Positions 27,309-48,983 are shown, counted from the first letter of the stretch. The stretch is DNA of 52,168 nucleotides from Acidimicrobiia bacterium (GCA_029863385.1 JAOTVU010000013.1:1-52168); one strand, 5' to 3'. Program-made: numbers and translations. The notes: a model not told the origin generated them from the letters alone.

Positions 27309-27797
27309 TCAAACGGTCCAGGTGGCGATCACCAGGGCTCGGTCCTTCCAGGCCTGGATATTGGCGTCGAGCACGTCCAACGGGTTGAAGGGCGTGACGC
27401 CCTTGATGAGGTCGTCCTCGCGCATCCCGTAGAGCGCACCCATGGCGAATCGGCAGGCGTAGACCTTGGCTCCCTCGTCGATCAGCGTCCGCAGCTGCTT
27501 GTTGTAGCCGAGGTTCCCGGGGAAGCCCTCCTGGCCGACCGCGGGGTAGCCCCGAGCAGCCGAAGCCATGAGCACGCCGGGCCCGTACAGGACGAACGTG
27601 AGCTCGAAGCCCTTCCGTTGCAGCCGCGTTGCGGTGAGCATGTTGACGAGCCCGACGGAGCCTTCGAACGGCACCGTGTGCATGAACACGTACGCCTTGT
27701 CACCTGGCTCCGCCTGATGGTCGGGGAACACCTTCTCTTCGGTGTCGAATAGAACGTCTCCCTCGACGGGGGGATCGATGGTCACAGTCTTGGGCAC
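27309..27797 (-). CDS. MSMEG_0572/Sll0783-like protein (DsrE-type fold), Nit1C marker
   Basis: 162 residues. KAYVFMHTVPFEGSVGLVNML, FVLYGPGVLMASAARGYPAVG and GAKVYACRFAMGALYG follow the DsrE pattern, with a conserved Cys in YACR. I recognise it as the MSMEG_0572/Sll0783 nitrogen-starvation family that travels with the Nit1C cyanide-assimilation cluster. The GTG start has AAGGAGG six bases upstream. It may handle a sulfur or cyano adduct, but the activity is not established. It closes the nitrile hydratase operon, though TAATAA-like boxes near 27820 could give it its own promoter. Confidence 0.85.
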   Translation of the reverse strand: MPKTVTIDPPVEGDVLFDTEEKVFPDHQAEPGDKAYVFMHTVPFEGSVGLVNMLTATRLQRKGFELTFVLYGPGVLMASAARGYPAVGQEGFPGNLGYNKQLRTLIDEGAKVYACRFAMGALYGMREDDLIKGVTPFNPLDVLDANIQAWKDRALVIATWTV

Positions 27798-27865
27798 GGT
27801 GGGCCTCCTTGTCTAGGTTATTATGCTTCCGACGGGTCGACGAACCCCTCGATCTGGTCGGGTCC

Positions 27866-28123
27866 TCACACCGCTGGTCGCCGGGGCGCTTCGGGCTCCG
27901 GCCATCGCTGGCGGTGGGATCCGGGTAGTGACTGGATGATCCTGCTGCGAAAGCCCCATGGCAGGACTCGGTAAATGGGGGCGAAGACCTGTCGCCAAAA
28001 ACGGTCGCGGATGCCGCGCGGTGGGGTCGGCGGATTGAGCTGGTGCTTGGCCGCCATCTGCTTCTGGGCATCGATGAGGAGGTAGTGCTCCGAGTTCTTT
28101 CTGAGCCAGCCGCTGAAACTCAC
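27866..28123 (-). CDS. Small conserved-looking hypothetical protein
   Basis: 85 residues from a GTG with AAGGAG six bases upstream; a TTG at 28147 gives eight more residues but lacks this site. Aromatic and basic segments stand out: SGWLRKNSEHYLLIDAQKQ and FWRQVFAPIYRVLPWGFRSR, then a Pro/Arg-rich tail. It could be an amphipathic membrane-surface or complex-assembly protein. I do not recognise the family. It lies between the flavoprotein and the MSMEG_0572-like gene. Confidence 0.6.
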   Translation of the reverse strand: MSFSGWLRKNSEHYLLIDAQKQMAAKHQLNPPTPPRGIRDRFWRQVFAPIYRVLPWGFRSRIIQSLPGSHRQRWPEPEAPRRPAV

Positions 28124-28147
28124 AATCGACTCCTTGCAATCGGACAA

Positions 28148-29473
28148 CTAGAGGGATGCCAGCAGGTTCTGGGCGGCGACCGAGATCGGCTCGTTCAGCG
28201 CCCCGATCGCCGGCGAGTAGACGTTTTCCATCGTGGCCAGCTGCTCGACGGTGATCCCGGCCCTCGTGGCCATGGCCAGGAAGTCGGCCCTCTCTTTGAT
28301 CCCCTCACCGCCGACCATCTGGGCGCCGATGATGCGAAGCTCGTCGGGATCGGCGAGGAGTTTCACCGTTATCGGCCTGACCCCCGGGTAGTAGCGGGCC
28401 CTGGTGATGCCCTGGGCGGTGGCGGAGTGGAACTCGAGGCCGAGTGCGGTTGCCAGCGTTTCGCCGAACGAGACGCCGCCGATCATCCATTCCCCGGCGA
28501 GCATCCCCCAAGGCACATAAACCGGTCGGTAGTCCCTCGTTCCGCCGGCGGCGTTGATCCCCGCGGTCTTGCCCTGGGCGTAGGCGTGGGAGCCGGATAG
28601 ACCCTGGAGCGGGATCATGGTGACGCCGTGCGGGATCTCTGTGCAGTCGCCGGCGCCGTAGATGTCGGGGTCGGACGTCTGCATCGTCGCGTCGACGACC
28701 AGGCCGCCGGTCGTTCCGAGCTTCAGCCCTGCCGCCATGGCGAGGGGGTTGTTGGGGACCTTGTGGGTTCCAATGATGGCCAGGTCGGCCTCGATGGTTC
28801 CGTCGGTTGTCTCGACGTGGGTCAGGGCTCCGGTGCCGCCACCGAGCTCTGTGACCTTGTGACCCCAGAGCATCTTGACGCCAAGTTTCTCCCAGTCGGC
28901 CCTGACCGGCTCGACGATGTCAGGGTCGATCACGTCGGCCATCGGCCAGGGACCGGGGTCGACGACGGTGACCTCTATGCCGCGGTGGACGAGGGCGGTG
29001 ACCATCTCCATCGCAATTGCGCCGGCCTCGACGACGACCGCCGACTTGGTGCTGTCGAGGACCACGTCCCACTCCATGGCCCGCCGGATGTTCTTCACCT
29101 CGTAGATGCCGGAGAGGTCGGTTCCCGGCACGCCGGGGTCGGCGTAGTTCCAGCCTGCGGCGATCACGAGGCGGTCGTAGGAGACGGCACCCTCCCCGTC
29201 GACCTCGACGGTCTTTGCCGCCCGATCGATCGAACGGACGGTCGTCTCGTAGTGGACGTCGATGCCAGACTGGATGTACTGCTCCTTGGTCGCCAAGAAG
29301 AGACGGTCGAACGAGTCGATCTCCTTGCCGTGGACGAACGGGATCCCGCAGGGGCTGTAGGCGACATCCTCGTACTCGGTGTAGACGACGACCTCGGCGT
29401 CAGGATCGACCCCCTTGGCGGCGCCAGCTGCGCCTAATCCTGCGGCGCCGCCACCAATGATCACGATCTTCAT
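28148..29473 (-). CDS. FAD/NAD(P) disulfide oxidoreductase, CoA-disulfide-reductase-like
   Basis: 441 residues. N-terminal FAD loop VIIGGGAAGLGAAGAAK, a single active-site Cys in AYSPCGIPF (C43), a NAD(P) domain whose usual GxGxxG is altered to VVEAGAIAMEM, and the FAD-binding IYGAGDCTE. The C-terminal dimer domain ends YSPAIGALNEPI. The single Cys fits the CoA-disulfide reductase/NADH oxidase branch that forms a mixed disulfide with a small thiol. Beside an apparent CoM operon, a CoM-disulfide or other small-thiol reductase role is possible. The altered NAD(P) loop is odd. Confidence 0.87.
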   Translation of the reverse strand: MKIVIIGGGAAGLGAAGAAKGVDPDAEVVVYTEYEDVAYSPCGIPFVHGKEIDSFDRLFLATKEQYIQSGIDVHYETTVRSIDRAAKTVEVDGEGAVSYDRLVIAAGWNYADPGVPGTDLSGIYEVKNIRRAMEWDVVLDSTKSAVVVEAGAIAMEMVTALVHRGIEVTVVDPGPWPMADVIDPDIVEPVRADWEKLGVKMLWGHKVTELGGGTGALTHVETTDGTIEADLAIIGTHKVPNNPLAMAAGLKLGTTGGLVVDATMQTSDPDIYGAGDCTEIPHGVTMIPLQGLSGSHAYAQGKTAGINAAGGTRDYRPVYVPWGMLAGEWMIGGVSFGETLATALGLEFHSATAQGITRARYYPGVRPITVKLLADPDELRIIGAQMVGGEGIKERADFLAMATRAGITVEQLATMENVYSPAIGALNEPISVAAQNLLASL

Positions 29474-29516
29474 TGCAGGCTCCCGTCTGCCGGCTGTTCG
29501 TGGCGGCGATCGTCTC

Positions 29517-29969
29517 TTATCCTTTATGCTCGTTTCGTATCGTAGATTTGGGTTGGAGATCAGTCAACCTTGGGTTGATGGTAGAGATCGTGATGGGGGG
29601 CGTCCCCTTGATCGTGTTCGTCACGTAGCAGACCCGTTCGGCGATGGATATCAGCCGCTCGTGCTCCGATGGATCGCAGCCGACGTCGGCGGCGATCTCG
29701 ATCGCCGAGAAACGCGGCCCGTCGTAGATTCCGGTTGCCTCGACCCCGAGGTGGGTCAGCTCGAGCTCGCGCTTCCTGGCCGCGTAGGACAGCGCCAGGG
29801 TGAAACACGAGGCGACCGAGGCGAGCAGAACCTCGGTCGGTTGCGGGCCCTGATTGGTCCCGCCGGCCTCGACCGGCTCGTCGATCGTGAATGTGAACTC
29901 GCCCGCTTGGACCTCGCAACGGTACCCGCCCTGCCAGGTGGCCGAGACCGATCGTTGCTTGGCCGCCAC
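29517..29969 (-). CDS. OsmC/Ohr-family protein
   Basis: 150 residues. EAGGTNQGPQPTEVLLASVASCFTLAL holds the first reactive Cys, and ISIAERVCYVTNTIKG the second. These are the paired cysteines of OsmC peroxidases that reduce organic hydroperoxides with small thiols. The GTG start is six bases after the nitrile hydratase activator stop, so it belongs to that operon. It may protect the cobalt-thiolate centre from oxidation; that is inference. Confidence 0.9.
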   Translation of the reverse strand: MAAKQRSVSATWQGGYRCEVQAGEFTFTIDEPVEAGGTNQGPQPTEVLLASVASCFTLALSYAARKRELELTHLGVEATGIYDGPRFSAIEIAADVGCDPSEHERLISIAERVCYVTNTIKGTPPITISTINPRLTDLQPKSTIRNEHKG

Positions 29970-29975: not shown

Positions 29976-30317
29976 CTAGTGATCGTGCCCGTGGGGTCGT
30001 TGCGCCAGCACGCCGATCCGATCGCGCATCGCACTCTCGGCGATGGTCTGCTTGGCAGCGAGGATCGCCTCGAGCGCTTCCTGCCACTGGCGGTAGTAGT
30101 GGTAGGGCTCGTCGCCATGGTCGGCGTCCTCCCATCGGCCGATGGCCTCGATGAGGTGGTCGCGGAATTCGTCGAGGGTGAACAGGCCCTGCTGGGCGAG
30201 GGCGAGGGCCATGGCGAAGCTCCTGCTCTCCCACGGCGCGGCGAAGGTCAGCTCACCATTGGTCCGGGGTGGGGCGGTGACCCCGTCTGTACCGAGGCTC
30301 AGCACATCGAGGCTCAC
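29976..30317 (-). CDS. Nitrile hydratase activator/accessory protein
   Basis: 113 residues. [23 protein letters not shown], the [15 protein letters not shown] segment and [14 protein letters not shown] match the small NHase activators related to the beta-subunit N-terminus. The C-terminus HGHDH can bind cobalt. Activators exchange into the alpha subunit and load Co while the claw cysteines are oxidised. The GTG at 30317 overlaps the alpha stop (GTGA); longer frames are shadows of alpha. Confidence 0.9.
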
Positions 30318-30913
30318 GGTGCCGTCACCTTGGCGACGCCGACCATCGCATCTCTCGTTACGAGCTCGGCCAGCTCCTCCTCCGACATCGACTCGGTTCC
30401 CTCTGGGCGCTCGGGGAGGACGAAGTATCGGTTCTCGGCGCTCGAGTCCCAGACCCGGACGTCGACGTCGTCGTCGAGGTCGAGACCCATCTCCGAGAGG
30501 AGCGTTCGAGGCTCGCGGACCATCCGCGAGCGGTAGGCCGGATCCTTGTACCAGTCGGGCGGCAGGCCGAGGACCGGCCAGGGATAGCACGAGCAGAGCG
30601 TGCATACGACCACGTTGTGGATCTCGGGCGTGTTCTCGACGACGACGATGTGCTCCCCCTGGGGTCCAGCGAATCCAAGCTCGCCGACGGCGGCGGTCCC
30701 GTCGTCGAGCAGCTGCCGGCGGTAGGCGTCGTCGGTCCACGCCTTGGCGACGACCTTGGCCCCGTTCATCGGTCCGACGTCGGCGACGTAGCGGTTGATC
30801 AGCCCATCGAGGGCTTCCGGCGTCACCAGTCCCGCCTCGACGAGTAGCGACTCGAGCGCCTCGGTTCGCAACTCGATCGACGGCATGTCTGCGGGTTCAG
30901 TCTTCTCGGTCAC
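30314..30913 (-). CDS. nthA: Nitrile hydratase alpha subunit, cobalt type
   Basis: 199 residues. The metal claw is [12 protein letters not shown] (C104, C107, S108, C109); Thr after the first Cys marks the cobalt class rather than the iron class. [23 protein letters not shown] is the conserved segment after the claw, with the Arg that contacts oxidised cysteines. It hydrates nitriles to amides with the beta subunit in the cytosol. The sequence is also close to the thiocyanate hydrolase catalytic subunit. Overlaps beta (ATGA-type) upstream and the activator downstream. CbtAB at 48 kb could supply cobalt. Confidence 0.95.
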
Positions 30914-31572
30914 GATGCGTCCTCCATGTAGCTCTCGAAGTGGTCGATGCGGACCGTCGCCGGCTCGGCGTCCGGGCCCCAGAGCTCGGTGCTCTCGTAC
31001 TCGACCGTGTAGACGTGCTGGGGGTCCTCGCCGGTGAAGTGGGCGGTGGCGTCGGGGAGGACGGCCGGTGGCCGATGGGCGATGACGACGCCCCGCCGGC
31101 CCCTGACGTAGGAGGGCAGCCTCGTGTGGCCCGACTTCCCGATCGACGACGTCGTGACCTGCTGCCCGACGGCGAACGCGGGCTCGCTGTCGAGCTCCCG
31201 GAGCGAGCCGCTCCCGCCGCGCTCGTAGCTCGGCTTCTTCTCGGTGACCGGCTCGGGGGTCGGTACGTCCTCACCCCGGAGCTGGCGGGCCCTGGCCTCG
31301 ACCGCACCGGGCGGGAGGACACCGCTGTCGACGAGCAGCAGCTCGGCGCACTTCATCCACCGCCCGTAGTACCCGTCGTTGAGGTACTCGGTTGGGTGGA
31401 GCCGCTCGAGCCCGTGGCGGAAGGCATCGAGGTTGGTCCCCGACAGGCCCATCGACATCGCACCGAGCGCGAAGGCCCTTCCCTGCCACCTGGTGCGGAA
31501 GACCGGCTCGTCAGGATCGATCGTCACCGACCCCCAACCGTGCTTGCCGCCCATGTCGTGTATGCCGTCCAT
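30910..31572 (-). CDS. nthB: Nitrile hydratase beta subunit
   Basis: 220 residues: [16 protein letters not shown] start, [22 protein letters not shown] mid-segment, and the SH3-like C-terminal domain with [18 protein letters not shown] and [13 protein letters not shown]. All are typical of intact beta subunits; thiocyanate hydrolase has this chain split in two, so a true nitrile hydratase architecture is favoured. First gene of the operon (beta-alpha-activator-OsmC-flavoprotein-small protein-MSMEG_0572-like). Divergent from a HTH-cupin regulator at 31750. Confidence 0.95.
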
Positions 31573-31749: not shown

Positions 31750-32421
31750 GTGCACGAGCTTATGAGCAGCCAGCCGGCTTCGGAGGGAGACAGGAGAACA
31801 CGGCGATCGGCCGGCGCCAAGGAGCCCAAGACGGGAGTCCCCTTGGGTGAGCAGGAACACACCAAGGTTGTCAGCTCCATCGGTCCCAAGATCCGGGAGC
31901 TTCGGGGTGCCAGGCAGCTCTCGCTCCAGCAGCTGGCCGACCGCTCGGACGTCTCGCCGGCGGCCATCCACAAGGTTGAGCAGGGCAACATGGTGCCGAC
32001 GATCACCACCCTGCTGAAGATCGCCGCCGCGCTCGACCGGCCGGTGTCGTACTTCGTCGAAGAGGAGACCGAAACCCCGAGCTACGTCGTGTACACCCCG
32101 GCCTCGGAGCGGCGGAAGGTGTACACCGCCCATCAGGGGATCGATCTGCAGGGCATCTCCGGTTCGTACGGGCAGTACTTCGTCGCCGCCGCCGTCGCCG
32201 AGGTCGTCGCCGGAGCGTCGAGCGGCGAGTCGCCGTTGCGCCATCCTGGCGAGGAGCTGATCTTCATCCTCTCCGGGACGCTCGAGGTCGACGTCGCCGA
32301 GCAGACTTTCCGACTGACGACCGGCGACTCGGTCCACTTCCGCACCGACCATGACCACCGGTGGCGCAATCCGACCAAGCGTCCGGCCAAGGCGGTGTGG
32401 ATGGCGCTGCGGCCCGCCTAG
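31750..32421 (+). CDS. HTH (XRE)-cupin transcriptional regulator
   Basis: 223 residues from the GTG (an ATG at 31762 is an alternative). Residues about 38-95 are a Cro/C1-type HTH (IRELRGARQLSLQQLADRSD, SPAAIHKVEQGNMVPTITTLLKIA). Residues about 140-220 are a cupin with the ligand residues in LRHPGEELIFILSGTLEVDV and DHDHRWRN. Such regulators sense a small metabolite in the cupin. It is divergent from the nitrile hydratase operon and faces the CoM-like operon, so it is the best candidate cluster regulator. Confidence 0.9.
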   Translation: MHELMSSQPASEGDRRTRRSAGAKEPKTGVPLGEQEHTKVVSSIGPKIRELRGARQLSLQQLADRSDVSPAAIHKVEQGNMVPTITTLLKIAAALDRPVSYFVEEETETPSYVVYTPASERRKVYTAHQGIDLQGISGSYGQYFVAAAVAEVVAGASSGESPLRHPGEELIFILSGTLEVDVAEQTFRLTTGDSVHFRTDHDHRWRNPTKRPAKAVWMALRPA

Positions 32422-32497: not shown

Positions 32498-34018
32498 TCA
32501 GGTTGAATCGCCGGCGGCGACGGCCTTCGCCTGGTCGACCACCTTGCGCTCCTGGTTGCGGTAGCGCTCCAGCTCGTCGGTCGCCGCTCGCTCGAGGCAC
32601 TCGGCTTCGGCGATGAAGTCCCGGGCCATCGCCTCGACTTCCTCGGGAGCTGCGCCACCCTGGGCGGTCCTCGTTGCGACGATCAGGCGGGGGTCGAGAG
32701 CGGTCGCCAGCTCGGCGTCGTCGAGGTCGAGGCCGTGGCCGGCGATCTCCTGGGCCGCCTCGTCGAGTAGCGCCGAGGTGATGTCGCGGCCCCTGAGCCC
32801 GGCAGCGCTTGCCCTTCTGACCGCCTCGCCTGCGATCAGGTAGGCGGTGCGGTAGTCGATGCCGGCGCTGAGCATGACGTACTCCGCGAGGTCTGTCGCC
32901 TGGCTGAACCCGCGATCGAGCTCCGATGACATTCGCTCGGCGTTGACGGTCAGCGTCTCGACGACGGCAGCGGTCAAGGCGCTGATCTTGCGTGCGAAAT
33001 CGAGGGCGCGAGGGATCTCCCCGTAGGCGAAGATCAGGTTGTCGCTGCGGGCTGACGGGCTCTTGACAACCGCCAGGAACCCCGACAGCCTGCCGATCAT
33101 GACGCCGCTCGCGCCACGGATGATCGACAGGGAGTACGGGTTGCGCTTCTGCGGCATCAGCACCGAGGCGCGTGTATAGGGCCCCGCCAGGTCGACGTAG
33201 TTGAACTCCTGGCTCGACCAGATCTCGAGGTCCTCCGAGAGCTTCGCCTGATTGGCGACGGCGCTGACGCAGGTAGCGAGGACATCGATGAACGTGTCCG
33301 TCTGCCACATCGCGTCACGGGTGTGGACGATCACGTCGTCGAAGCCGAGAAGGTCGGCGATGCGGTTTCGGTCGTCGAGCAGCCGACTCCCGTTCACGCA
33401 GCCGGCCCCGCCGGGGCTCCGGTTGACCTCGGGAAGGGCCCGGAGCAGCCGGTCGCTGTCGCGAAGGGCGGGCGGGACGAACCCGAGCAGGTAGTGGCCG
33501 AACGTCGACGGTTGCGCCTGCTGGAGGTAGGTCTGATCGGGCATGAACGTCGACGCGTGTTCGCTTGCCACCGCCGATGTCGTCGCTGCGAAGCGGGCGA
33601 ACGACGCGATCAGCTCAGCGACCTGTTTCCTGAGCAGTAGGCGCAACGCGACCCGGGCCGCCTCCCGTCGCGGCCGGCCGGCGTGGAGCCAGCCGGCCGA
33701 TCGGCCGATACGGTCGACGAACACCCGCTCCCGTGAGTTGTAGACCTCCCCGTACTCGGCGTGATACGGGAAATCAGCCGGATCGGTGGCGTACGCGTCG
33801 AGTAGGACGGTCAGCAGATCGCGGGTCGCGTCGTCGGGGACGAGGCCGCGGGCCCGGAGGTCCAGCACGTGGCCGAGGTCGGCGACGTTGAGGCCGTGAT
33901 GCAGGAGCGGGGCGTCGGCGATTTCCCACGCGAAGCCGGCGTCGATCAGTTCTTGTGCTGGCGCCTCCTGCGATGGTCCGGCGATTCGTTGCATGGTTCC
34001 ATCCGTCCTATCGAACAT
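32498..34018 (-). CDS. Aspartase/fumarase superfamily lyase, argininosuccinate-lyase-like
   Basis: 506 residues. YLQQAQPSTFGHYLLGF and GGAGCVNGSRLLDDR correspond to argininosuccinate lyase landmarks. The flexible signature loop reads SVLMPQKRNPYS instead of GSSxMPxKxNP, so the catalytic serine is shifted to RAS. In bacterial CoM synthesis two superfamily members act: one eliminates phosphate from phosphosulfolactate, the other adds a thiol to ethenesulfonate. With a second lyase and a ComA homologue in this operon, one of those roles is more likely than arginine synthesis. An ATG at 33994 is an alternative start. Overlaps the PLP gene. Confidence 0.85.
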   Translation of the reverse strand: MFDRTDGTMQRIAGPSQEAPAQELIDAGFAWEIADAPLLHHGLNVADLGHVLDLRARGLVPDDATRDLLTVLLDAYATDPADFPYHAEYGEVYNSRERVFVDRIGRSAGWLHAGRPRREAARVALRLLLRKQVAELIASFARFAATTSAVASEHASTFMPDQTYLQQAQPSTFGHYLLGFVPPALRDSDRLLRALPEVNRSPGGAGCVNGSRLLDDRNRIADLLGFDDVIVHTRDAMWQTDTFIDVLATCVSAVANQAKLSEDLEIWSSQEFNYVDLAGPYTRASVLMPQKRNPYSLSIIRGASGVMIGRLSGFLAVVKSPSARSDNLIFAYGEIPRALDFARKISALTAAVVETLTVNAERMSSELDRGFSQATDLAEYVMLSAGIDYRTAYLIAGEAVRRASAAGLRGRDITSALLDEAAQEIAGHGLDLDDAELATALDPRLIVATRTAQGGAAPEEVEAMARDFIAEAECLERAATDELERYRNQERKVVDQAKAVAAGDST

Positions 34019-34970
34019 CAGCTATCAGGCGTTGTGCGACGCCGAGCGAGCCGCCGGTGTGCCAGTAGAGAACCGGTCCTTCGACGTGGGCGTCGGCGAG
34101 CCACCGCAGGGCTTTGGCGTTGTAGACCGGGTCGACGAGGAGCCCGCTTGCTGCCTCGATCGCGATCGCCAGCTCGGTCTCGGCTGGTTCCGGACGGCCG
34201 AAGCCGGCGCCACGCCCGTCGACGATGGTCGGCTCGGGGACATCGCCTTGCGGCAGACCGAGCATCGACGCGCCGCGCTCGGTGAGCTTGCGAACGACGG
34301 CGACGGTCTCGAGGACCGGCCTCGAAACCGCAACGCCGACGACCGGCCAGGTCACACCGAGCAGCGCTTGTCCGACAAGGAGGCCGCTGATGCTGCCGCC
34401 CGAGCCGACCGGGAGCACGACGGTGCCTGGCTCGGCGCTTACATGAAGCAGCTGTTCGTCGAGCTCGGCCGCCGCGGCGGCGAATCCGAGCGCCCCGATC
34501 TCGCTGGCGCCGCCCCGGGGGACCAGGTACGGCGTCGCGCCGGCCAGGTCGAGGCACCGAACCCGCTCTGCGGCGTGGCGATCCATCGATGCCCGGTCGT
34601 CGGAGCCGGTGAAGTGGACGGACGTCCCGAGCCGGCGACAGACGAGCAGCGCCGGCGGGGGCTCGGCCGGCTCGGTGCCGTAGGCGTACTGGTCGACTGC
34701 GAGCCCGTGGCGCCTCGCCGCATTCGCCATCGTCGCCGCGAGGTTCGAGGTCGGACCAGCGGCGAGCACGACGTTCGTCGCCCCGGCGGCGAGCATGTCG
34801 CCGAGGAGGTACTCGACGGCCCGGACCTTGTTGCCGCTCCAGCCGAAGCCGGTCAGATCGTCCCGCTTGATCAGCAGCCGGTCGACGCCGAGCAGGCGCT
34901 CGACCGCATCGTCGCTGTGCAGCGGAGTCGGGAAGCGACCGAGCGCAACCCGGGGTCGGGCTAGGTCCAC
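34008..34970 (-). CDS. PLP enzyme, D-cysteine desulfhydrase/ACC deaminase family
   Basis: 320 residues. The PLP lysine is in GFGWSGNKVRAVEYLL (K48), the phosphate-binding loop in LPVGSGGSISGLLVG, and the end has YWHTGGSLGV. These define the DcyD/ACC deaminase branch of fold type II. In the known bacterial CoM pathway the last step is a DcyD-like enzyme that cleaves a cysteine thioether to CoM, pyruvate and ammonia. Its GTG overlaps the upstream lyase stop, and its stop overlaps the downstream lyase start, so all are one operon. Confidence 0.88.
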   Translation of the reverse strand: MDLARPRVALGRFPTPLHSDDAVERLLGVDRLLIKRDDLTGFGWSGNKVRAVEYLLGDMLAAGATNVVLAAGPTSNLAATMANAARRHGLAVDQYAYGTEPAEPPPALLVCRRLGTSVHFTGSDDRASMDRHAAERVRCLDLAGATPYLVPRGGASEIGALGFAAAAAELDEQLLHVSAEPGTVVLPVGSGGSISGLLVGQALLGVTWPVVGVAVSRPVLETVAVVRKLTERGASMLGLPQGDVPEPTIVDGRGAGFGRPEPAETELAIAIEAASGLLVDPVYNAKALRWLADAHVEGPVLYWHTGGSLGVAQRLIADVR

Positions 34971-40463: not shown

Positions 40464-40508
40464 GATCTCCTCCGTCAATGATTCTGTTTCTCGACCGACA
40501 GAACATAT

Positions 40509-43355: not shown

Positions 43356-44033
43356 TCAACCTTCGGATCCGCCGGCGGCCCGGTCGAGGATCAAGGCCCG
43401 CATGGCGGCGGCGTTCTCCTCGAACGTACCGACGTCTGTCGTTTCCCGATCGTCCATTCCGGGAACGTCGATGTTGACGACGTCGACACCGTCGGCGTCC
43501 ATCTCGATCACCGACACGACGTAGTTCGGCCTGGCCGTCGACGGATCCTGCTCGACGGTCGACACCAGTGCGAGGCATGTCGCCAGGTGGAACTCGATCG
43601 ACTGGTAGGGATCGGCGAGCCCTCGCTCGATGTCGCCTCGTCGATGGAGGACGGCCCACTCGCTGCTCTCATCCCTCGCGGCCTCGACACGCTGCCGTCG
43701 GTCGGCCCGCTCCAGCTGGGCCGCCAACTCACGATCGCGGAGGGCGAATGCGGCGCCGAGCACATCGTCGGCCGCGAGCCTGGACGGCATCGCAAACCCG
43801 CTCTGCGCCTCGGCGGCGGCCAGCGCGTCGGCTCGGTTCGTCCATCGCCGGCTGAGATCGTCATGGCTCGCAACATCGGCGAGCACGTCGGCCAGGCTGC
43901 GAACGAGGGGCACGGCGGCCTGGTAGAGGTCGGTGGCCGTCGTCGCCAGCGGATACAGCCGCTGCTCCGAGATCGACCAGACAGCCCTCAGCTCAGCGAT
44001 GGAGCGATCGGTTTCGCCACCGGGTTCGGCCAC
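43356..44033 (-). CDS. Conserved-looking hypothetical protein
   Basis: 225 residues from a GTG with GAGGAGGT upstream. The N-terminal two thirds are predicted helical and rich in Ala, Arg and Glu (ISEQRLYPLATTATDLYQAA, ADDVLGAAFALRDRELAAQ). The C-terminal third is beta-like (YVVSVIEMDADGVDVVNIDVPG). No signal peptide, cofactor motif or membrane segment. I do not recognise it. It is divergent from the carbamate kinase operon and may belong to the pathway or regulate it. Confidence 0.75.
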   Translation of the reverse strand: MAEPGGETDRSIAELRAVWSISEQRLYPLATTATDLYQAAVPLVRSLADVLADVASHDDLSRRWTNRADALAAAEAQSGFAMPSRLAADDVLGAAFALRDRELAAQLERADRRQRVEAARDESSEWAVLHRRGDIERGLADPYQSIEFHLATCLALVSTVEQDPSTARPNYVVSVIEMDADGVDVVNIDVPGMDDRETTDVGTFEENAAAMRALILDRAAGGSEG

Positions 44034-44151: not shown

Positions 44152-45138
44152 ATGTCAGAGATAGCCGTACTCGCCCTCGGTGGCAATGCACTGAGCAGAG
44201 TGGACCAGCTGGGCACGCTCGACGAGCAGTACGACAACGCGAAGGTGATGGCGAAGTCAGTCCGGTCGCTGGTGAGGAAGGGGTGGCGCATCGTCATCGT
44301 GCACGGCAACGGCCCCCAGGTCGGCAACCTCGCCATCCAGCAAGAGGAATCGGCCGGGCTCGTGCCGGCGCTACCCCTGTTCGCGCTCGGTGCCATGACC
44401 CAGGGGGCGCTCGGAAGCCTGATATGCCTCGCCCTCAGCGAGATCTGCGGCGACGAGATCCCGGGGGCGGTCTCGGTGATCACCCATATGGAGGTTGATC
44501 CCGACGACCCCGCGTTCTCCTGCCCGACGAAGCCGATCGGGCCCTTCTTCTCCCGAGCGGAGGCGGCCACGCTCGCCACCGAGCGGTCTTGGACGATGGT
44601 CGAGGACGCGGGCCGCGGCTACCGCCGGGTCGTCGCGTCACCGCTGCCGAAGGCGCCGATCGAAGCGGCGGCGATCGCCACCCTCGTCGCTGCCGGCTAC
44701 ATCGTCGTTGCCGCGGGCGGTGGCGGGATCCCGGTGGTGCCCGGTGAACAGGGTGCCTACCGGGGGATCGACGCCGTGATCGACAAGGACCTCGCCGCCG
44801 AGCGCATCGCCGACGCCGCCGACGCGGAGGCCCTGGTCATGGTCACGGGCGTCCCGGCGGTGAAGCTCGACTTCGGGACCGCGACCGAGAGGACGATCGA
44901 GGAGATGACGATCGACGAGGCGAAGCGACACATGAAAGACGGCCAGTTCCCGCCTGGCAGCATGGGCCCGAAGGTCCAGGCGGCGATCAACTTCGCGACG
45001 GCTCCGGGCCGGGTCTCGGCGATCACGACGCCGGAGCTCGTCGACACGACGCTCGACCGGCCGGCGGGTGTGATCGAGGGGGCTAGGGGCACCCGGATCG
45101 TCGCAGGGGCCGGGGGTGCCGGGGCGGCGGCATCATGA
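44152..45138 (+). CDS. arcC: Carbamate kinase
   Basis: 328 residues from an ATG with a weak GAGAG upstream. AVLALGGNALSR, VIVHGNGPQVGNLAI, VVAAGGGGIPVV and AVIDKDLAAERIA are classical carbamate kinase sites for carbamate and ATP. The reaction carbamoyl phosphate + ADP gives ATP + carbamate, then NH3 and CO2. The gene overlaps fdrA by ATGA, coupling it to the carbamoyltransferase as in allantoin/oxamate clusters (AllK). Confidence 0.95.
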   Translation: MSEIAVLALGGNALSRVDQLGTLDEQYDNAKVMAKSVRSLVRKGWRIVIVHGNGPQVGNLAIQQEESAGLVPALPLFALGAMTQGALGSLICLALSEICGDEIPGAVSVITHMEVDPDDPAFSCPTKPIGPFFSRAEAATLATERSWTMVEDAGRGYRRVVASPLPKAPIEAAAIATLVAAGYIVVAAGGGGIPVVPGEQGAYRGIDAVIDKDLAAERIADAADAEALVMVTGVPAVKLDFGTATERTIEEMTIDEAKRHMKDGQFPPGSMGPKVQAAINFATAPGRVSAITTPELVDTTLDRPAGVIEGARGTRIVAGAGGAGAAAS

Positions 45139-46718
45139 CGGTGGACGGCGCCGATACCGACGCTGTAACGCTGGATCGCCTCGTCCTCGCCGACTCCTAC
45201 AAGGACAGCGTCCGGCTCCTCGAAGCGACACGGGCCATGCTCGATGTCGACGGCGTCTCCTGGGCCACGGCGGTGATGGCGACGCCGGCCAATGTCGCGG
45301 TCCTCGGCGACGAGGGCTTCGAGCCCATCGAGGCTAAGGCCAACGATCTCGTGCTCGCAGCGCGTGGTGAGGGCCCGGCGGTCGCCGCGGCTCTCGAGCG
45401 TGGCAAGGACTCGCTGTTCACGGCCGTCGCCGACACCGGCTCGGGCCCCGACAGCGCCGAACCTGTGACCGATCTCCGCCAAGCCGTGGCGGCGGCACCG
45501 GGGGCCAACCTGGCGATCGTCTCGGTTCCCGGCCCCTACGCCGCGCTCGAGGCCCACAAGGCGATGACCGCCGGCCTTGACGTCCTCCTGTTCTCCGACA
45601 ACGTGTCGCTCGACGCCGAGATCGAGTTGAAGCGACGGGCTCGCTCCCTCGGGCGCCTGGTGATGGGTCCGGGAGCGGGCACGGCCATGCTCGGCGGGGC
45701 CGGGCTCGCATTCGCCAACCGCGTCAGTCGAGGGCCGGTCGGCATCGTCGCCGCGGCCGGGACCGGCGCCCAGGAGGCGATGAGCCTGCTCGACCGCTGG
45801 GGAATCGGCGTCTCGCATGTGATCGGGCTCGGCGGGCGGGATCTCTCCGAGGCGGTCGGGGGCCTGATGGCGACCTCGGCGATCGAGGCGCTCGACGCCG
45901 ACGACGGGACCGAGGCGATCCTCGTCGTCTCGAAGCCTCCGACCCCGGCTGTTGCCGAAGCGCTCCTCGGGCCGCCGCGGTCCAAGCCGATCGTTGCATC
46001 GATGATCGGTCTCCGTGAGCCGGTCGTCGTCGACCGTGGGGTCGTCGTCTGCAATACCCTCGAACAGGGCGTGGTCGAGACGATGGGCCGTCTCGGGTCG
46101 GAACCGCCCGATACCATCGGCGACCTTGATGGCCGACTCGCAACGGTCGTCGCGTCGCTGTTCCCGACCCGACGGCGTCTGGTCGGGCTCTTCAGCGGGG
46201 GGACCCTGTGCTACGAAGCGATGACGATCGCCAGCCGCCACGTCGGCCCGATCCACTCGAACACCCCGCTCGAGGCCGGCTGGGCACTCCCGGAACCCGA
46301 CGGTGCCCACGTCTGCCTCGACCTCGGTGAGGAGGAGTACACCGAGGGCCGACCCCACCCGATGATCGACCCCGAGGCCCGGATCTCCTTCCTGCGAGCC
46401 CAGGTGACCGACCCGACCGTCGCCGTCGTGATCATCGACGTGGTGATCGGCGACGGCGCGCACCCTGATCCGGCCGGTCTGCTGGCCCCGGTCGCCGCCG
46501 ATATTGTCAAGTCGGGGGCCGCCGTCGTCGCCTACGTGCTCGGGACCGAGCGTGACCCGCAGGGCTTCGAGCGTCAGCGACGCGTCCTGACCGAAGCCGG
46601 TTGCCTGGTCACCGAGACCGCGGCCAGGGCCGCTTTGGCCGCCGCAGCGGTCGTCACCCGTGACCCGGCACTTGTCCTCGAGGATCTCGCCGTTGAGCTG
46701 GTGGCGTCGACGCGATGA
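45135..46718 (+). CDS. fdrA: FdrA/AllF-like subunit of oxamate carbamoyltransferase
   Basis: 527 residues with two CoA-ligase-like Rossmann halves. VMATPANVAVLGDEGF, LAIVSVPGPYAALEAHKAM, VGIVAAAGTGAQEAMSLLDRWG (phosphate loop) and RLVGLFSGGTLCYEA are FdrA landmarks. AllF provides part of the carbamoyltransferase site with AllG and AllH. Linked to carbamate kinase upstream and a glycosyltransferase downstream, both by ATGA overlaps. No allantoin genes are nearby, so the carbamoylated substrate may differ. Confidence 0.9.
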   Translation: MTVDGADTDAVTLDRLVLADSYKDSVRLLEATRAMLDVDGVSWATAVMATPANVAVLGDEGFEPIEAKANDLVLAARGEGPAVAAALERGKDSLFTAVADTGSGPDSAEPVTDLRQAVAAAPGANLAIVSVPGPYAALEAHKAMTAGLDVLLFSDNVSLDAEIELKRRARSLGRLVMGPGAGTAMLGGAGLAFANRVSRGPVGIVAAAGTGAQEAMSLLDRWGIGVSHVIGLGGRDLSEAVGGLMATSAIEALDADDGTEAILVVSKPPTPAVAEALLGPPRSKPIVASMIGLREPVVVDRGVVVCNTLEQGVVETMGRLGSEPPDTIGDLDGRLATVVASLFPTRRRLVGLFSGGTLCYEAMTIASRHVGPIHSNTPLEAGWALPEPDGAHVCLDLGEEEYTEGRPHPMIDPEARISFLRAQVTDPTVAVVIIDVVIGDGAHPDPAGLLAPVAADIVKSGAAVVAYVLGTERDPQGFERQRRVLTEAGCLVTETAARAALAAAAVVTRDPALVLEDLAVELVASTR

Positions 46719-47932
46719 GCGATCGGGTCGCGATCACGACCTACTCGACGAAGCCTCGGGGCGGGGTCGTCCACACGTTGGAGCTGGCCGAGTCGCTCAG
46801 CGCTCTCGGCGTCGACACCACGGTCGTCGCGATGGGCGATCCCGACCAAGGCTTTTTCCGTCGGGTCGACGTGCCGGTCGTCGTGATCCCGGCACCGCCG
46901 AGGCAGGACACGCTCGAGGAACGGGTGTTCGCCTGGATCGGTGCGATGCAGCAGGGACTCGCCGACCTCATGCCGGGGTTCACCGTTGTCCACGCCCAGG
47001 ACTGCATCTCAGCCCGAGCCGCCAATGCCGTACGCAAAGCTGGCTCGCCGGGGGCCGACGTCACGCTCGTCCGCACCGTCCACCACGTCGACGACTTCAC
47101 GACCCAGGCCCTGATCGACTGCCAGGCCGCGGCGATCACCGAGCCGGATCACGTCGTCGTCGTGAGCGAGATGTGGCGCCGCCAGTTGTGGGCCGACTAC
47201 GGTGTCGAGGCGACGATGATCACCAACGGCGTCCGCCACGAACGGTTCGCCGCCGCCAACGTCGACCCGACGGCGGCCGCTGCATGCCGCGACCGGCTCG
47301 GCGTCGCTGATCGTCACCTGTTCCTCACGGTCGGCGGGATCGAGCCCCGCAAGGGATCGAAGCATCTCATCGAGGCCCTGGCGGCGGTCAAGGCCGGCAA
47401 GGGCCCGTCGGCGTCACCTGTGCTCGCTGTCGTCGGTGGTCATTCCTTCCAGGACTACACCCCCTATCGGGAGGCCGTGCTCGCCTCGTTCGGGTCGCTT
47501 GGTCTTGAGCTGGGGACGGACGTCGTCATGCTCGGGACCGTTCCCGACGACGAGCTGCCGACATGGTTCCACGCCGCCGACAGCTTCGTCTTTCCGTCGC
47601 TCAACGAAGGGTGGGGCCTCGTCATCCTGGAAGCGCAGGCCGCCGGGCTCCCGGTGCTCGTCTCCGACATCGAGGTGTTCGGTGAGTTCCTTGAGGACGG
47701 GACGAACGCCCTCATGACCGCAGCTGGTGATGCCGGCTCGATCGCAGCGGCGATGCGGCGGCTGATCGACGACGCAGGTCTCCGGCGTCGTTTGGGGTCC
47801 GCAGGGCCGGCATCGGCCGCTCGCTTCTCGTGGGAGGCCACCGCCAGAAGCCACATCGAGCTGTACTCCGCCATCACCGACGGGTCGATCCATGCGCCGA
47901 GCTCGGCTCCCTACCGCCAACCAGCGAGCTGA
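46715..47932 (+). CDS. GT4 glycosyltransferase, MSMEG_0565 family (Nit1C marker)
   Basis: 405 residues, GT-B fold. The acceptor side has TYSTKPRGGVVHTLELAESL; the donor side has LTVGGIEPRKGSKHLIEAL and the E-x7-E site in NEGWGLVILEAQAAGLPV. TVHHVDDFTT matches the MSMEG_0565 family that accompanies Nit1C genes. It may glycosylate a small cofactor or intermediate; no acceptor is established. Third gene of the carbamate kinase-fdrA operon. Confidence 0.9.
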   Translation: MSDRVAITTYSTKPRGGVVHTLELAESLSALGVDTTVVAMGDPDQGFFRRVDVPVVVIPAPPRQDTLEERVFAWIGAMQQGLADLMPGFTVVHAQDCISARAANAVRKAGSPGADVTLVRTVHHVDDFTTQALIDCQAAAITEPDHVVVVSEMWRRQLWADYGVEATMITNGVRHERFAAANVDPTAAAACRDRLGVADRHLFLTVGGIEPRKGSKHLIEALAAVKAGKGPSASPVLAVVGGHSFQDYTPYREAVLASFGSLGLELGTDVVMLGTVPDDELPTWFHAADSFVFPSLNEGWGLVILEAQAAGLPVLVSDIEVFGEFLEDGTNALMTAAGDAGSIAAAMRRLIDDAGLRRRLGSAGPASAARFSWEATARSHIELYSAITDGSIHAPSSAPYRQPAS

Positions 47933-47959
47933 CCTGGTCTGAGCGCCGACCGGCGGGCG

Positions 47960-48757
47960 TCAGCGCGCGGCAGGCGCGGCGGCGCCGGCGATCTGGCCGG
48001 CGTCTATCCTGGCCTGTCGCTCCATGAGCGTGCCCATTGCGAGCGTGACGGCCGCCCAGAGCGAGGCGAGCGCGCCGAGCGACGAGAGCCGGAAACGCCA
48101 GATGAGGTCGGCGGGAGCCGTGACGGCGTCGGGGTTGTCGGGGAAAACGGCGAAGATGGCGACAAGGCCAACGGTGTAGACGATGGCCGCGATCCAGCCG
48201 GTCGCCACCGCGCTCCTGGTCGAGCGGTGGATCAGTTGAGCGACGAAGACGGTCAAGGCGATCGACGCAGCGAGGACGGCGAAGTAGAGGATCGTTCGCT
48301 GGTTGATCGTGTCGGGGTCGCCGACGGCCGGCGGGTTCGCCGGGAGCTTGAGGAAGGGGATGACGACCACCGACCAGAACCCCAGCGCCCCGAGGCGGAG
48401 GCTCGCCCCGAACGGGTGTCTTGTACCAAGCAGCGGGGCTGTCGCCCCGAGAACGACGGCGAAGATGAGGCCGATGCCGATGCCAAAGACCAGCAGGCCG
48501 ATCGCACCGCCGATCTCCTGAACGCCGCGGGTGAACAGGTCCTCGTGGACGTGGCCGGCCTCGACCTTTGTTGCAGCACTGTTCTCGAGGGCGATGGCGT
48601 CGTTGATCGGACCTCGCCCGAACGTGACCATGAACAGCGCCGCGGCGAGGCCGCCGCTCAGCCCTGCGATCAGTCCGTTCTTCAAGTAGCCAAGCACGGC
48701 GATCCGTCCACCGATCGGTTCCGGCCCTGTTCCCCGGTCAGTGGCAGGGGACGGCAA
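47960..48757 (-). CDS. cbtA: CbtA cobalt transporter subunit
   Basis: 265 residues with about five or six membrane segments (LIAGLSGGLAAALFMVTFG, IGLLVFGIGIGLIFAVVLGA, LGFWSVVVIPFL, AVLAASIALTVFVAQL, AIVYTVGLVAIFAVF). HVHEDLF and RHPFG supply histidines. CbtA with CbtB forms a predicted cobalt uptake system, usually B12-controlled. Here it lies beside a cobalt nitrile hydratase cluster and no B12 genes. Overlaps cbtB by 20 bp. Confidence 0.9.
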   Translation of the reverse strand: MPSPATDRGTGPEPIGGRIAVLGYLKNGLIAGLSGGLAAALFMVTFGRGPINDAIALENSAATKVEAGHVHEDLFTRGVQEIGGAIGLLVFGIGIGLIFAVVLGATAPLLGTRHPFGASLRLGALGFWSVVVIPFLKLPANPPAVGDPDTINQRTILYFAVLAASIALTVFVAQLIHRSTRSAVATGWIAAIVYTVGLVAIFAVFPDNPDAVTAPADLIWRFRLSSLGALASLWAAVTLAMGTLMERQARIDAGQIAGAAAPAAR

Positions 48758-48941
48758 CGATGTGGCGGCCGTCGTGGAAGAACTCGTGCAGCGTCTCGGC
48801 CATCGACCCGAGCAGCGCGCCGTTTTCCATCGTCACGACGTAGATCATCATCACGCTGAAGGCGACGACGGCCCACGCCCAAAATGGGACGTCGAGTTCG
48901 GGGAGCGTCGCCTTCGGTATTGGTGCAGACTCGATTGGCAT
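48738..48941 (-). CDS. cbtB: CbtB cobalt transporter small subunit
   Basis: 67 residues with one membrane helix (FWAWAVVAFSVMMIYVVT) and a His-rich C-terminus (LHEFFHDGRHIVAVPCH) that can capture cobalt. This is the standard CbtB plan. The ATG at 48941 is chosen because AAAGGA lies about six bases upstream; an ATG two codons earlier touches that site. No B12 riboswitch is visible in the short upstream region; instead there is the motif at 48969. Confidence 0.88.
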   Translation of the reverse strand: MPIESAPIPKATLPELDVPFWAWAVVAFSVMMIYVVTMENGALLGSMAETLHEFFHDGRHIVAVPCH

Positions 48942-48968
48942 CACCATTCCTTTAGTGTTGCACATGTT

Positions 48969-48983
48969 TCGTATAGTTGACAA
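48969..48983 (-). promoter_or_regulatory. Candidate operator of cbtBA
   Basis: TTGTCAACTATACGA on the minus strand, 28-42 bp before the cbtB start. It matches 14 of 15 bases with the motif upstream of the nitrile hydratase operon at 31629, suggesting one regulator controls enzyme and cobalt supply. Confidence 0.6.

What the first reader, a model, noticed from the sequence alone, without database searches (positions are those of the whole stretch)
27309..48983. Possible thiol-templated cyanide/nitrile nitrogen pathway joining nitrile hydratase, CoM synthesis, carbamoyltransferase and Nit1C genes
Seen: Co-type nitrile hydratase with activator, CbtAB, a ComA-type five-gene operon, FdrA/AllG/AllH with carbamate kinase, a one-Cys disulfide reductase, OsmC and five Nit1C marker families, but no nitrilase. 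Known: cyanide attacks disulfides to give organic thiocyanates; nitrile hydratases and thiocyanate hydrolase share a catalytic subunit fold; AllFGH makes carbamoyl phosphate by phosphorolysis; Nit1C is linked to cyanide assimilation. Inference: R-S-S-R + CN gives R-SCN; hydratase gives R-S-CO-NH2; AllFGH-like enzyme gives R-SH + carbamoyl phosphate; carbamate kinase gives ATP + NH3 + CO2; the flavoprotein and thiol close the cycle, with R-SH possibly CoM.
Basis: partly seen in the sequence, partly recalled or inferred. Interest (0 to 1): 0.93.

Follow-up and report, generated by a model that had tools for sequence, protein, structure and literature searches.

The report
Coenzyme M cluster for cyanide nitrogen
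This stretch of bacterial DNA holds a gene cluster, found again in dozens of other bacteria, in which genes predicted to make coenzyme M, a small thiol known from methane and alkene metabolism, sit with genes of the nitrile hydratase and oxamic-transcarbamylase families; the cluster likely uses the thiol to carry nitrogen from cyanide or nitriles until it would be released as ammonia with a gain of ATP.

Summary
In detail: the named genes are at 27309-48983. A genome scan with the CoM-operon protein DUF7714 kept 80 loci (of 85). I class five as alkene/epoxide-type; of the other 75, 67 carry Nit1C-type and 57 AllFGH genes in the stretch held. In 49 whole genomes AllG is in 43 of 44 of the second class and 0 of 5 alkene-type; epoxyalkane:CoM transferase is in 1 of 44 and was not found in the window's genome. 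The 55 AllG rows from CoM genomes form one clade that excludes 27 other AllG. Cluster-linked nitrile hydratases group together too. Of 13 second-class genomes without nitrile hydratase, 3 have a Nit6803-type nitrilase, 9 an AllG-linked amidohydrolase, 1 neither. So CoM synthesis has a second bacterial context, tied to nitrile hydration and carbamoyl chemistry. The proposed cycle (CoM-SCN, CoM-S-CO-NH2, carbamoyl phosphate) is the best fit I found but is inferred throughout: no substrate was tested, two related clusters lack the CoM operon, nitrilase-type loci show no carbamate kinase, and the radical SAM, GNAT and AIR-synthase-like genes are unexplained. Module real: about 0.9. Mechanism: about 0.4.

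The parts
27309..27797 (-). MSMEG_0572/Sll0783-family DsrE-like protein (Nit1C marker), invariant Cys115
   Evidence: TIGR04044 207 bits, cut-off 110; Cys115 in 34 of 34 aligned relatives
27866..28147 (-). orf93, small conserved protein of unknown function
   Evidence: no family; recurs in 30 of 45 second-class loci of 20 kb or more
28148..29473 (-). CoA-disulfide-reductase-like flavoprotein with a single active-site-type Cys42; candidate CoM disulfide/thiol redox enzyme (inferred)
   Evidence: Pyr_redox_2 158 bits, TIGR03385 243 bits below cut-off; PDB relatives NADH oxidase, CoA disulfide and CoA-persulfide reductase; Cys42 in 38 of 41
29517..29969 (-). OsmC-family protein with two conserved Cys
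   Evidence: PF02566 64 bits; Cys55 and Cys114 in 54 of 54
29976..30317 (-). nitrile hydratase activator
   Evidence: TIGR03889 68 bits, cut-off 46
30314..30913 (-). Co-type nitrile hydratase alpha (CTLCSC)
   Evidence: TIGR01323 303 bits, cut-off 250; thiocyanate hydrolase gamma model 196, cut-off 291; tree
30910..31572 (-). nitrile hydratase beta
   Evidence: TIGR03888 196 bits, cut-off 152
31750..32421 (+). HTH-cupin regulator
   Evidence: HTH_3 and Cupin_2; 28 of 45 loci
32498..34018 (-). XcbC-like lyase (predicted phosphosulfolactate to sulfoacrylate step of CoM synthesis)
   Evidence: NF052535 429 bits, below cut-off 575, ahead of argH 264; 53-57% identical to XcbC beside epoxyalkane:CoM transferase in L066, L075, L079
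34008..34970 (-). XcbE-like PLP enzyme
   Evidence: NF052537 231 bits, below cut-off 450, best of 8 models
34961..36310 (-). XcbD-like lyase
   Evidence: NF052536 513 bits, below cut-off 600, best of 18 models
36295..37206 (-). DUF7714 (called xcbF1 in vinyl-chloride degraders)
   Evidence: PF24830 290 bits; 44% identical to the JS614 operon protein; PMC8727900 passages
37194..38000 (-). ComA/XcbB-like phosphosulfolactate synthase
   Evidence: PF02679 245 bits
38108..38911 (-). AllH-like subunit
   Evidence: PF11392 57 bits; no NCBIfam match
39015..40478 (-). AllG-like subunit of the CoM-linked clade
   Evidence: PF06545 226 bits; trees
40521..41519 (+). AIR-synthase-like (sll0787-type) protein
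   Evidence: TIGR04049 248 bits, below cut-off 321
41516..42091 (-). MSMEG_0567-type GNAT
   Evidence: TIGR04045 101 bits, cut-off 68
42099..43262 (-). MSMEG_0568-family radical SAM protein
   Evidence: TIGR04043 371 bits, cut-off 304
43356..44033 (-). orf225, conserved protein without a family
   Evidence: no Pfam/NCBIfam match; 24 of 45 loci; model pLDDT 93.5 without a convincing PDB match
44161..45138 (+). carbamate kinase (start codon not fixed)
   Evidence: NF009007 299 bits, cut-off 266
45135..46718 (+). FdrA/AllF-like subunit
   Evidence: NF004760 395 bits, below cut-off 433; PDB 3dmy FdrA, then succinyl-CoA synthetase alpha chains
46715..47932 (+). MSMEG_0565-family glycosyltransferase
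   Evidence: TIGR04047 369 bits, cut-off 260
47960..48757 (-). CbtA, proposed cobalt transporter
   Evidence: PF09490 171 bits
48738..48983 (-). CbtB, proposed cobalt transporter (weak)
   Evidence: PF09489 27.4 bits, cut-off 27; TIGR02459 17 bits, cut-off 64

Best explanation
The 22-kb cluster joins homologues of all five genes of the actinobacterial CoM operon, a nitrile hydratase of a cluster-specific clade and AllFGH with carbamate kinase, and it likely encodes a cycle in which CoM would carry a cyano group as S-cyano-CoM, the hydratase is predicted to turn that into S-carbamoyl-CoM, AllFGH would release CoM and carbamoyl phosphate, and carbamate kinase would make ATP, ammonia and CO2. Entry would be cyanide opening a CoM disulfide (known chemistry for cystine and glutathione mixed disulfides), with the one-Cys flavoprotein and OsmC predicted to manage the CoM thiol/disulfide pool. 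A possible reason for CoM: the cyanide adduct of cystine cyclises because its amine attacks the nitrile, and CoM has no amine (inferred). FdrA resembles succinyl-CoA synthetase, which cleaves a thioester with phosphate (recalled), so phosphorolysis of an S-carbamoyl thiol is a natural reaction for the fold (inferred). Shown here: gene content, recurrence, linkage, subfamily clades, near-absence of the alkene CoM enzyme. Inferred: every reaction and the substrate. Unexplained: radical SAM, GNAT, AIR-synthase-like protein, glycosyltransferase, MSMEG_0572, orf93, orf225.
For: (1) Recurrence: 67 of 75 non-alkene DUF7714 loci hold a Nit1C-type gene and 57 of 75 an AllFGH gene in the stretch held; 0 of 5 alkene-type loci do. 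(2) Whole genomes: AllG in 43 of 44 vs 0 of 5. (3) Evenly drawn phylum sample of 296 genomes: DUF7714 in 9; AllG in 7 of 9 vs 29 of 287 (p 7e-6), about 3-7 kb from DUF7714 in all 7; MSMEG_0568 radical SAM over cut-off in 8 of 9 vs 10 of 287 (p 3e-10); nitrile hydratase in 5 of 9 vs 32 of 287 (p 0.002). (4) Nitrile hydratase in 31 of 44 second-class genomes, within 14 kb of AllG in 26. (5) AllG: all 55 rows from CoM genomes are one clade against 27 others, SH-aLRT 99; 100/99 on a thinned set, 40 vs 26 rows. (6) Nitrile hydratase: all 34 rows labelled linked lie in one clade of 37 (SH-aLRT 90); 50 of 53 labelled unlinked lie outside, among them the window genome's second copy and both further Ruegeria copies. 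(7) Replacement: of 13 second-class genomes without nitrile hydratase, 3 have the nitrilase and 9 a linked amidohydrolase; linked amidohydrolase 9 of 10 vs 4 of 31 (p 1.8e-5). (8) Epoxyalkane:CoM transferase (E 1e-60) in 1 of 44, not in G000, in 4 of 5 alkene-type. (9) CoM function: window XcbC is 53-57% identical to XcbC beside that enzyme, and JS614 has the same five-gene order. (10) Chemical precedent: AllFGH makes carbamoyl phosphate by phosphorolysis (passages PMC11326118); HypF/HypE pass a Cys thiol through S-carbamoyl and S-cyano (passages PMC12134894); cyanide cleaves disulfides to R-SCN (passages PMC9291117).
Against: No substrate, product or reaction is tested, and nothing in the cluster is specific for cyanide. 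The hydratase is closer to ordinary Co-nitrile hydratase than to thiocyanate hydrolase. Two genomes (G127, G192) hold a related cluster (carbamate kinase, MSMEG_0572, amidohydrolase, radical SAM, GNAT, AIRS, AllG; in G192 also FdrA, GT, OsmC, flavoprotein and orf93) without DUF7714 or Xcb genes; they do have an unlinked ComA among other neighbours, and their AllG lie outside the CoM clade. The 3 nitrilase-type loci keep FdrA or AllG in the genome but show no carbamate kinase in the stretches held. One nitrile hydratase of the clade (L131) sits by a second Nit1C-like set without CoM genes in the 20 kb seen, and one (L153) about 12 kb from an alkene-type CoM operon. AIR-synthase-like proteins could catalyse the opposite, ATP-driven dehydration, as HypE does, although HypE was not among the nine PDB sequences matched. 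Xcb/ComA matches are below NCBIfam cut-offs. LarE/LarC genes in part of the loci are unexplained.
Confidence: 0.4

Rival explanations
1. A biosynthetic cluster: carbamate kinase and AllFGH run towards carbamoyl transfer, the AIR-synthase-like protein dehydrates or activates an amide with ATP (as HypE does), and radical SAM, GNAT and glycosyltransferase tailor a CoM-containing small molecule; the hydratase or nitrilase trims an intermediate.
For: Radical SAM, GNAT, AIRS and a MshA-like glycosyltransferase recur with the CoM operon; nitrilase-type loci also carry a LnmK-like acyltransferase/decarboxylase; HypE precedent for S-carbamoyl to S-cyano.
Against: Nitrile hydratase would undo such a dehydration; regulator and Co transporters suit catabolism as well; no transporter or scaffold typical of a natural product was noted in the window.
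Confidence: 0.2
2. Ordinary nitrile catabolism plus a neighbouring low-molecular-weight thiol system: CoM with the CoA-disulfide-reductase-like enzyme and OsmC buffers cyanide or electrophile stress, while AllFGH handles an unrelated ureido compound.
For: OsmC (38 of 45) and the flavoprotein (32 of 45) follow the CoM operon; AllFGH serves several carbamoyl donors elsewhere, e.g. beside biuret hydrolase (passages PMC12625717).
Against: AllG of these clusters is a clade of its own and is retained in 43 of 44 CoM genomes; nitrile hydratase sits within 14 kb of AllG in 26 of 31; an amidase for ordinary amides is not part of the cluster in the window.
Confidence: 0.2
3. Same carrier, other entry: cyanate or a carbamoyl/ureido compound rather than cyanide gives S-carbamoyl-CoM or another carbamoyl donor, AllFGH and carbamate kinase finish, and the hydratase widens the substrate range.
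For: Thiols react with cyanate to give S-carbamoyl thiols (recalled); amidohydrolase replaces the hydratase in 9 of 10 genomes; an AmiS/UreI-type channel gene lies in 10 of 45 loci.
Against: A nitrile-level enzyme (hydratase or nitrilase) is present in 34 of 44 second-class genomes counting any copy.
Confidence: 0.12
4. CoM serves alkene or epoxide oxidation here as in known CoM bacteria, and the nitrile and carbamoyl genes are passengers.
For: The CoM operon is of the alkene-degrader kind.
Against: Epoxyalkane:CoM transferase not found in the window genome and in 43 of 44 second-class genomes at E 1e-60; the association persists across several gene orders and five phyla.
Confidence: 0.04

Closest known systems
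Nit1C cyanide/nitrile assimilation cluster (Pseudomonas nitBCDEFGH; sll0783-type in cyanobacteria)
   Same: MSMEG_0572, radical SAM, GNAT, AIR-synthase-like protein and MSMEG_0565 glycosyltransferase families are shared
   Different: No nitrilase in the window; nitrile hydratase, AllFGH, carbamate kinase and a CoM operon are added; the redox enzyme is CoA-disulfide-reductase-like. Three CoM loci do keep the nitrilase. Nit1C function from passages of PMC11049912.
Bacterial CoM biosynthesis for alkene/epoxide metabolism (Xanthobacter Py2, Nocardioides JS614, Mycolicibacterium NBB4)
   Same: ComA, XcbC, XcbD and XcbE homologues; DUF7714 in the JS614 order, and an unannotated, interrupted DUF7714-like stretch before ComA in Py2
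   Different: No epoxyalkane:CoM transferase found in the genome; neighbours are nitrile and carbamoyl genes. A 2024 paper states that CoM genes had been found only in methanogens and alkene-utilising bacteria (passage, PMC11507031).
Oxamic transcarbamylase AllFGH with carbamate kinase AllK (E. coli allantoin pathway)
   Same: All three subunit families plus carbamate kinase; FdrA best PDB match is E. coli FdrA 3dmy
   Different: AllG is of a separate clade; no allantoin genes were seen beside it; linked to nitrile hydratase.
HypF/HypE cyanide-ligand synthesis
   Same: Works like it in part: carbamoyl phosphate, S-carbamoyl thiol and S-cyano thiol would be the same intermediates; an AIR-synthase-fold protein is present
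   Different: Opposite direction, small-molecule thiol instead of a protein Cys (inferred); HypE was not among the PDB sequences matched.
Thiocyanate hydrolase
   Same: Catalytic subunit homologous to nitrile hydratase alpha
   Different: Window alpha scores 303 on the nitrile hydratase model and 196 on the SCNase gamma model, under its cut-off 291.

Membership tests
Nit1C cluster | nitrilase of the Nit6803/NitC type in the cluster | tested here: not met
   none among 50 window ORFs scanned with Pfam; the rest of G000 was not searched for it
Nit1C cluster | MSMEG_0572, radical SAM, GNAT and AIR-synthase-like companions | tested here: met
   three over NCBIfam cut-offs, AIRS below its cut-off
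Alkene/epoxide CoM pathway | epoxyalkane:CoM transferase | tested here: not met
   no match at E 1e-60 in G000 (92% complete)
Bacterial CoM biosynthesis (Xcb) | ComA, XcbC, XcbD, XcbE homologues together | tested here: met
   best models for each gene, all under NCBIfam cut-offs; order as in JS614
Bacterial CoM biosynthesis (Xcb) | CoM actually made | not testable with these tools
   needs metabolite analysis
AllFGH carbamoyltransferase | FdrA, AllG and AllH subunits | tested here: met
   PF06545, PF11392 over cut-off; FdrA 395 bits on NF004760 but under 433, and 3dmy E 7e-72
AllFGH carbamoyltransferase | phosphorolysis of a carbamoyl donor to carbamoyl phosphate | not testable with these tools
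   inferred from E. coli enzyme (passages)
Nitrile hydratase, Co type | alpha CTLCSC, beta, activator | tested here: met
Thiocyanate hydrolase | gamma-subunit model over cut-off | tested here: not met
   196 vs 291 bits

The most novel reading that the evidence does not exclude
Bacteria assimilate cyanide, and gain ATP from it, on a dedicated small-molecule carrier: CoM disulfide traps cyanide as S-cyano-CoM, a special nitrile hydratase (or a nitrilase or amidohydrolase in other lineages) makes S-carbamoyl-CoM, and a CoM-specific AllFGH phosphorolyses it to carbamoyl phosphate; this would be the first use of CoM outside hydrocarbon and methane metabolism.
Probability: 0.33. Interest if true: 0.95.

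Novelty: categorically new. Interest (0 to 1): 0.85.

Why it matters
A passage of a 2024 paper says CoM biosynthesis genes had been found only in methanogenic archaea and alkene-utilising bacteria (PMC11507031). Here the operon recurs in bacteria of five phyla that, in 43 of 44 genomes searched, lack a detectable epoxyalkane:CoM transferase and instead carry a matching subfamily of AllG. Whatever the chemistry, that gives CoM a second bacterial role and makes it directly testable. If the cycle holds, it is a thiol-templated, ATP-yielding route for cyanide or nitrile nitrogen, and it would give a function to part of the long-unexplained Nit1C genes and to a non-allantoin branch of AllFGH.

Tried and rejected
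Selenocysteine: seven amidohydrolase hits were flagged with one in-frame TGA; in all seven it is the last or next-to-last codon of the matched stretch, i.e. the ordinary stop. Rejected.

CoM for alkenes: tested with the Xanthobacter enzyme; rejected for the window genome and 43 of 44 others at E 1e-60. One of my five 'alkene-type' loci, L072, had no such enzyme either and was so classed only by a JS614-like flavoprotein neighbour.

Strict exclusivity of nitrilase and nitrile hydratase: no single locus of the 80 holds both, but G005 and G035 have both in the genome.

CoM-less clusters as proof that CoM is dispensable: weakened because their AllG lie outside the CoM clade, but not dismissed. That they have ComA elsewhere is not counted as support: the neighbours differ and ComA occurs in 32 of 296 genomes of the phylum.

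No tRNA and no Rfam match at gathering threshold in the window. Literature: nine searches listed no paper joining CoM synthesis to nitrile hydratase or AllFGH; the library lacks most subscription journals. The 2022 PNAS paper on the bacterial CoM pathway is not held; its content is known to me only by recall and by citation.

Rows dropped or limits: one search kept 80 of 85 relatives, found with an alignment built around the window's DUF7714, so window-like loci are favoured; 50 of the 80 were chosen for whole-genome searches and 49 were held (L080 not). Tree rows under 140 or 200 residues (300 for XcbC) were left out; 16 AllG rows were dropped. In one search two pairs of 'linked' rows are the same locus fetched twice (L107 = L035, L113 = L171), so 32 loci are distinct; L160 was labelled linked though its contig is too short to show it; L142, labelled unlinked, sits in a neighbourhood like the linked P. 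dioxanivorans copy.

Full report
What is there. The window is contig C153 (52,168 bases given) of an unnamed 5.04-Mb, 293-contig assembly, 92% complete and 5.6% contaminated. Three tightly packed runs stand out from the sequence: nitrile hydratase beta, alpha, activator, OsmC, CoA-disulfide-reductase-like flavoprotein, orf93 and MSMEG_0572 (minus strand); ComA, DUF7714, XcbD, XcbE and XcbC (minus strand, neighbours overlapping by 10-16 bases); carbamate kinase, FdrA and MSMEG_0565 glycosyltransferase (plus strand, overlapping by 4 bases). AllG, AllH, AIRS, GNAT, radical SAM and orf225 lie between. To the left, IS110- and rve-type transposase genes (18302-23578) separate it from unrelated genes.

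Is the CoM operon genuine? In Nocardioides JS614 and Mycolicibacterium NBB4, alkene/vinyl-chloride degraders, the same order ComA, hypothetical, XcbD, XcbE, XcbC is annotated, and the JS614 'hypothetical' is DUF7714 (44% identical, E 2e-73). It has been named xcbF1 in such strains (passages of PMC8727900). Xanthobacter Py2 shows an unannotated DUF7714-like stretch, in two pieces, just before ComA. The window XcbC is 53-57% identical to XcbC that sits beside a 71-78% Xanthobacter-like epoxyalkane:CoM transferase (L066, L075, L079). Against it: none of the four homologues with an NCBIfam model reaches that model's cut-off. CoM itself was not measured. PF24830 also rings in Methanosarcina acetivorans (control).

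Recurrence. A scan of 84,980 species genomes with a DUF7714 alignment kept 80 loci of 85. tblastn with the window's proteins splits them into five with alkene-type neighbours and 75 others. Of the 75, 67 hold at least one of MSMEG_0572, radical SAM, GNAT, AIRS or glycosyltransferase and 57 at least one of FdrA, AllG, AllH; of the five, none holds either. The misses include short contigs and stretches cut at 10 kb. In the 45 second-class loci of 20 kb or more: OsmC 38, AllG 37, AIRS 37, flavoprotein 32, GNAT 32, orf93 30, AllH 30, MSMEG_0572 29, radical SAM 27, nitrile hydratase alpha 26, FdrA 23, carbamate kinase 21, glycosyltransferase 20. The order of the modules differs between lineages. 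The records are 67 Actinomycetota, 5 Pseudomonadota and one each of Acidobacteriota, Bacillota and Chloroflexota, by record title; some are metagenome bins, so single-record phyla are unsure.

Whole genomes. Fifty loci were taken to whole-genome searches; 49 genomes were held. AllG: 43 of 49; the six without are G005 (Paraburkholderia) and all five alkene-type. Nitrile hydratase: 35 of 49, 31 of the 44 second-class genomes; in 26 of these 31 it lies within 14 kb of AllG. In P. dioxanivorans the nitrile hydratase is about 12 kb from the CoM operon while AllG, FdrA and carbamate kinase lie megabases away. Thirteen second-class genomes have no nitrile hydratase: three (Methylocystis, Nitrobacter, Sphingobium) have a Nit6803-type nitrilase beside the CoM operon; of the other ten, nine have an amidohydrolase (Amidohydro_2) within 17 kb of AllG, against 4 of 31 genomes with nitrile hydratase (Fisher p 1.8e-5). 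Genomes are related, so such p values overstate independence.

Unbiased background. In 296 genomes drawn evenly from the window's phylum, DUF7714 is in 9. AllG: 7 of 9 vs 29 of 287; in all seven it is about 3-7 kb from DUF7714. Radical SAM TIGR04043 over cut-off: 8 of 9 vs 10 of 287. Nitrile hydratase: 5 of 9 vs 32 of 287. One of the nine, G119, is a 3.4-kb contig.

Dedicated subfamilies. AllG from CoM genomes (55 rows: the window, 50 loci, four further stretches of such genomes) is one clade against 27 other AllG, among them 14 second copies from the same set of genomes and the AllG of two CoM-less clusters (SH-aLRT 99; 100/99 on a thinned set of 40 vs 26). The clade holds nitrilase-, nitrile-hydratase- and amidohydrolase-type clusters alike. 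Nitrile hydratase alpha: all 34 rows labelled linked fall in a clade of 37 (SH-aLRT 90, quick tree), 50 of 53 labelled unlinked fall outside; the Ruegeria cluster copy is inside while its two other copies are outside, so the gene seems to move with the cluster. Of the three unlinked rows inside, L142 looks like an unrecognised cluster copy, L131 sits by another Nit1C-like set, and L153 about 12 kb from an alkene-type CoM operon.

What uses CoM here? Epoxyalkane:CoM transferase (Xanthobacter query, E 1e-60) is not found in the window genome and is in 1 of 44 second-class genomes, on another contig than its CoM operon (G002), against 4 of 5 alkene-type. A 2024 paper states that CoM genes were known only from methanogens and alkene users (passage, PMC11507031). 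So another use must be sought.

Mechanism. What joins a nitrile-hydrating enzyme, a carbamoyl-phosphorolysing enzyme, carbamate kinase and a thiol? An amide that AllFGH can phosphorolyse should carry its CO-NH2 on N, O or S. The natural S case is R-SCN to R-S-CO-NH2 to R-SH plus carbamoyl phosphate. Each type of step has precedent: cyanide cleaves disulfides to R-SCN (passages of PMC9291117); HypF/HypE use S-carbamoyl and S-cyano Cys (passages of PMC12134894); AllFGH gives carbamoyl phosphate in E. coli (passages of PMC11326118); FdrA's next relatives in PDB are succinyl-CoA synthetase alpha chains, enzymes that split a thioester with phosphate (recalled). The same review passage says the cystine adduct cyclises through its amine; CoM has none, which may be why CoM is chosen (my inference). 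The flavoprotein keeps Cys42 (38 of 41) and OsmC both Cys (54 of 54), as thiol redox partners should. CbtAB would supply cobalt for the hydratase.

What does not fit. Two genomes (G127, G192) hold a related amidohydrolase-type cluster without DUF7714 or Xcb genes; in G192 it even has OsmC, the flavoprotein and orf93, so those three do not strictly follow CoM. Nitrilase-type loci show no carbamate kinase in the stretches held, though they keep AllG in the genome. The AIR-synthase-like protein is of the fold superfamily of HypE and could run the opposite step. Radical SAM, GNAT, glycosyltransferase, MSMEG_0572, orf93 and orf225 have no role in the cycle. No result here ties the cluster to cyanide rather than to another nitrile, cyanate or carbamoyl source.

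Verdict. A conserved module linking CoM synthesis to nitrile hydration and AllFGH carbamoyl chemistry: about 0.9. CoM as the carrier of the CN/CONH2 group: about 0.4. It is not filed as Nit1C (nitrilase not met) nor as an alkene CoM pathway (transferase not met), although it shares parts with both.

Noticed in passing
window 18302-23578: Two IS110-type transposase genes and an rve integrase gene lie left of the cluster, between it and unrelated hydantoinase/amidase genes; the cluster may have been brought in as an island.
   Followed up: no
L053:5996-8010 and similar loci: LarE (12 of 45) and LarC/nickel-insertion (11 of 45) genes stand beside the CoM operon in Pseudonocardiaceae loci, suggesting a nickel-pincer enzyme in that version of the cluster.
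   Followed up: partly
PF24830 control: DUF7714 rings in Methanosarcina acetivorans among 14 control genomes, so the bacterial CoM-operon protein has an archaeal relative.
   Followed up: no
L114:13653-16414: In P. eucalypti genes that look like sulfate adenylyltransferase subunits (CysD/CysN, by eye from the protein starts) lie near the CoM genes; they could feed sulfite to ComA.
   Followed up: no
L015:15511-16065 and 9 other loci of 20 kb or more: An AmiS/UreI-type channel gene is present in 10 of 45 second-class loci, a hint at import of a small amide, urea or nitrile.
   Followed up: partly
L108:7142-9986 and L109:8156-8977: What looks by eye like a FecCD/BtuC-type ABC transporter follows ComA in genus g102 genomes; a metal-chelate or corrinoid importer is possible.
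   Followed up: no
L013 and L034 record titles: Two of the 80 loci come from genomes titled SCNpilot, which I recall as thiocyanate bioreactors; no enrichment was tested.
   Followed up: no
G007:C9:23324-23861: The nitrile hydratase alpha gene of the Ilumatobacter genome is interrupted by an in-frame TAA.
   Followed up: no
window 43356-44033 (orf225): Conserved protein without a family; confident model (pLDDT 93.5) but no convincing PDB match.
   Followed up: partly
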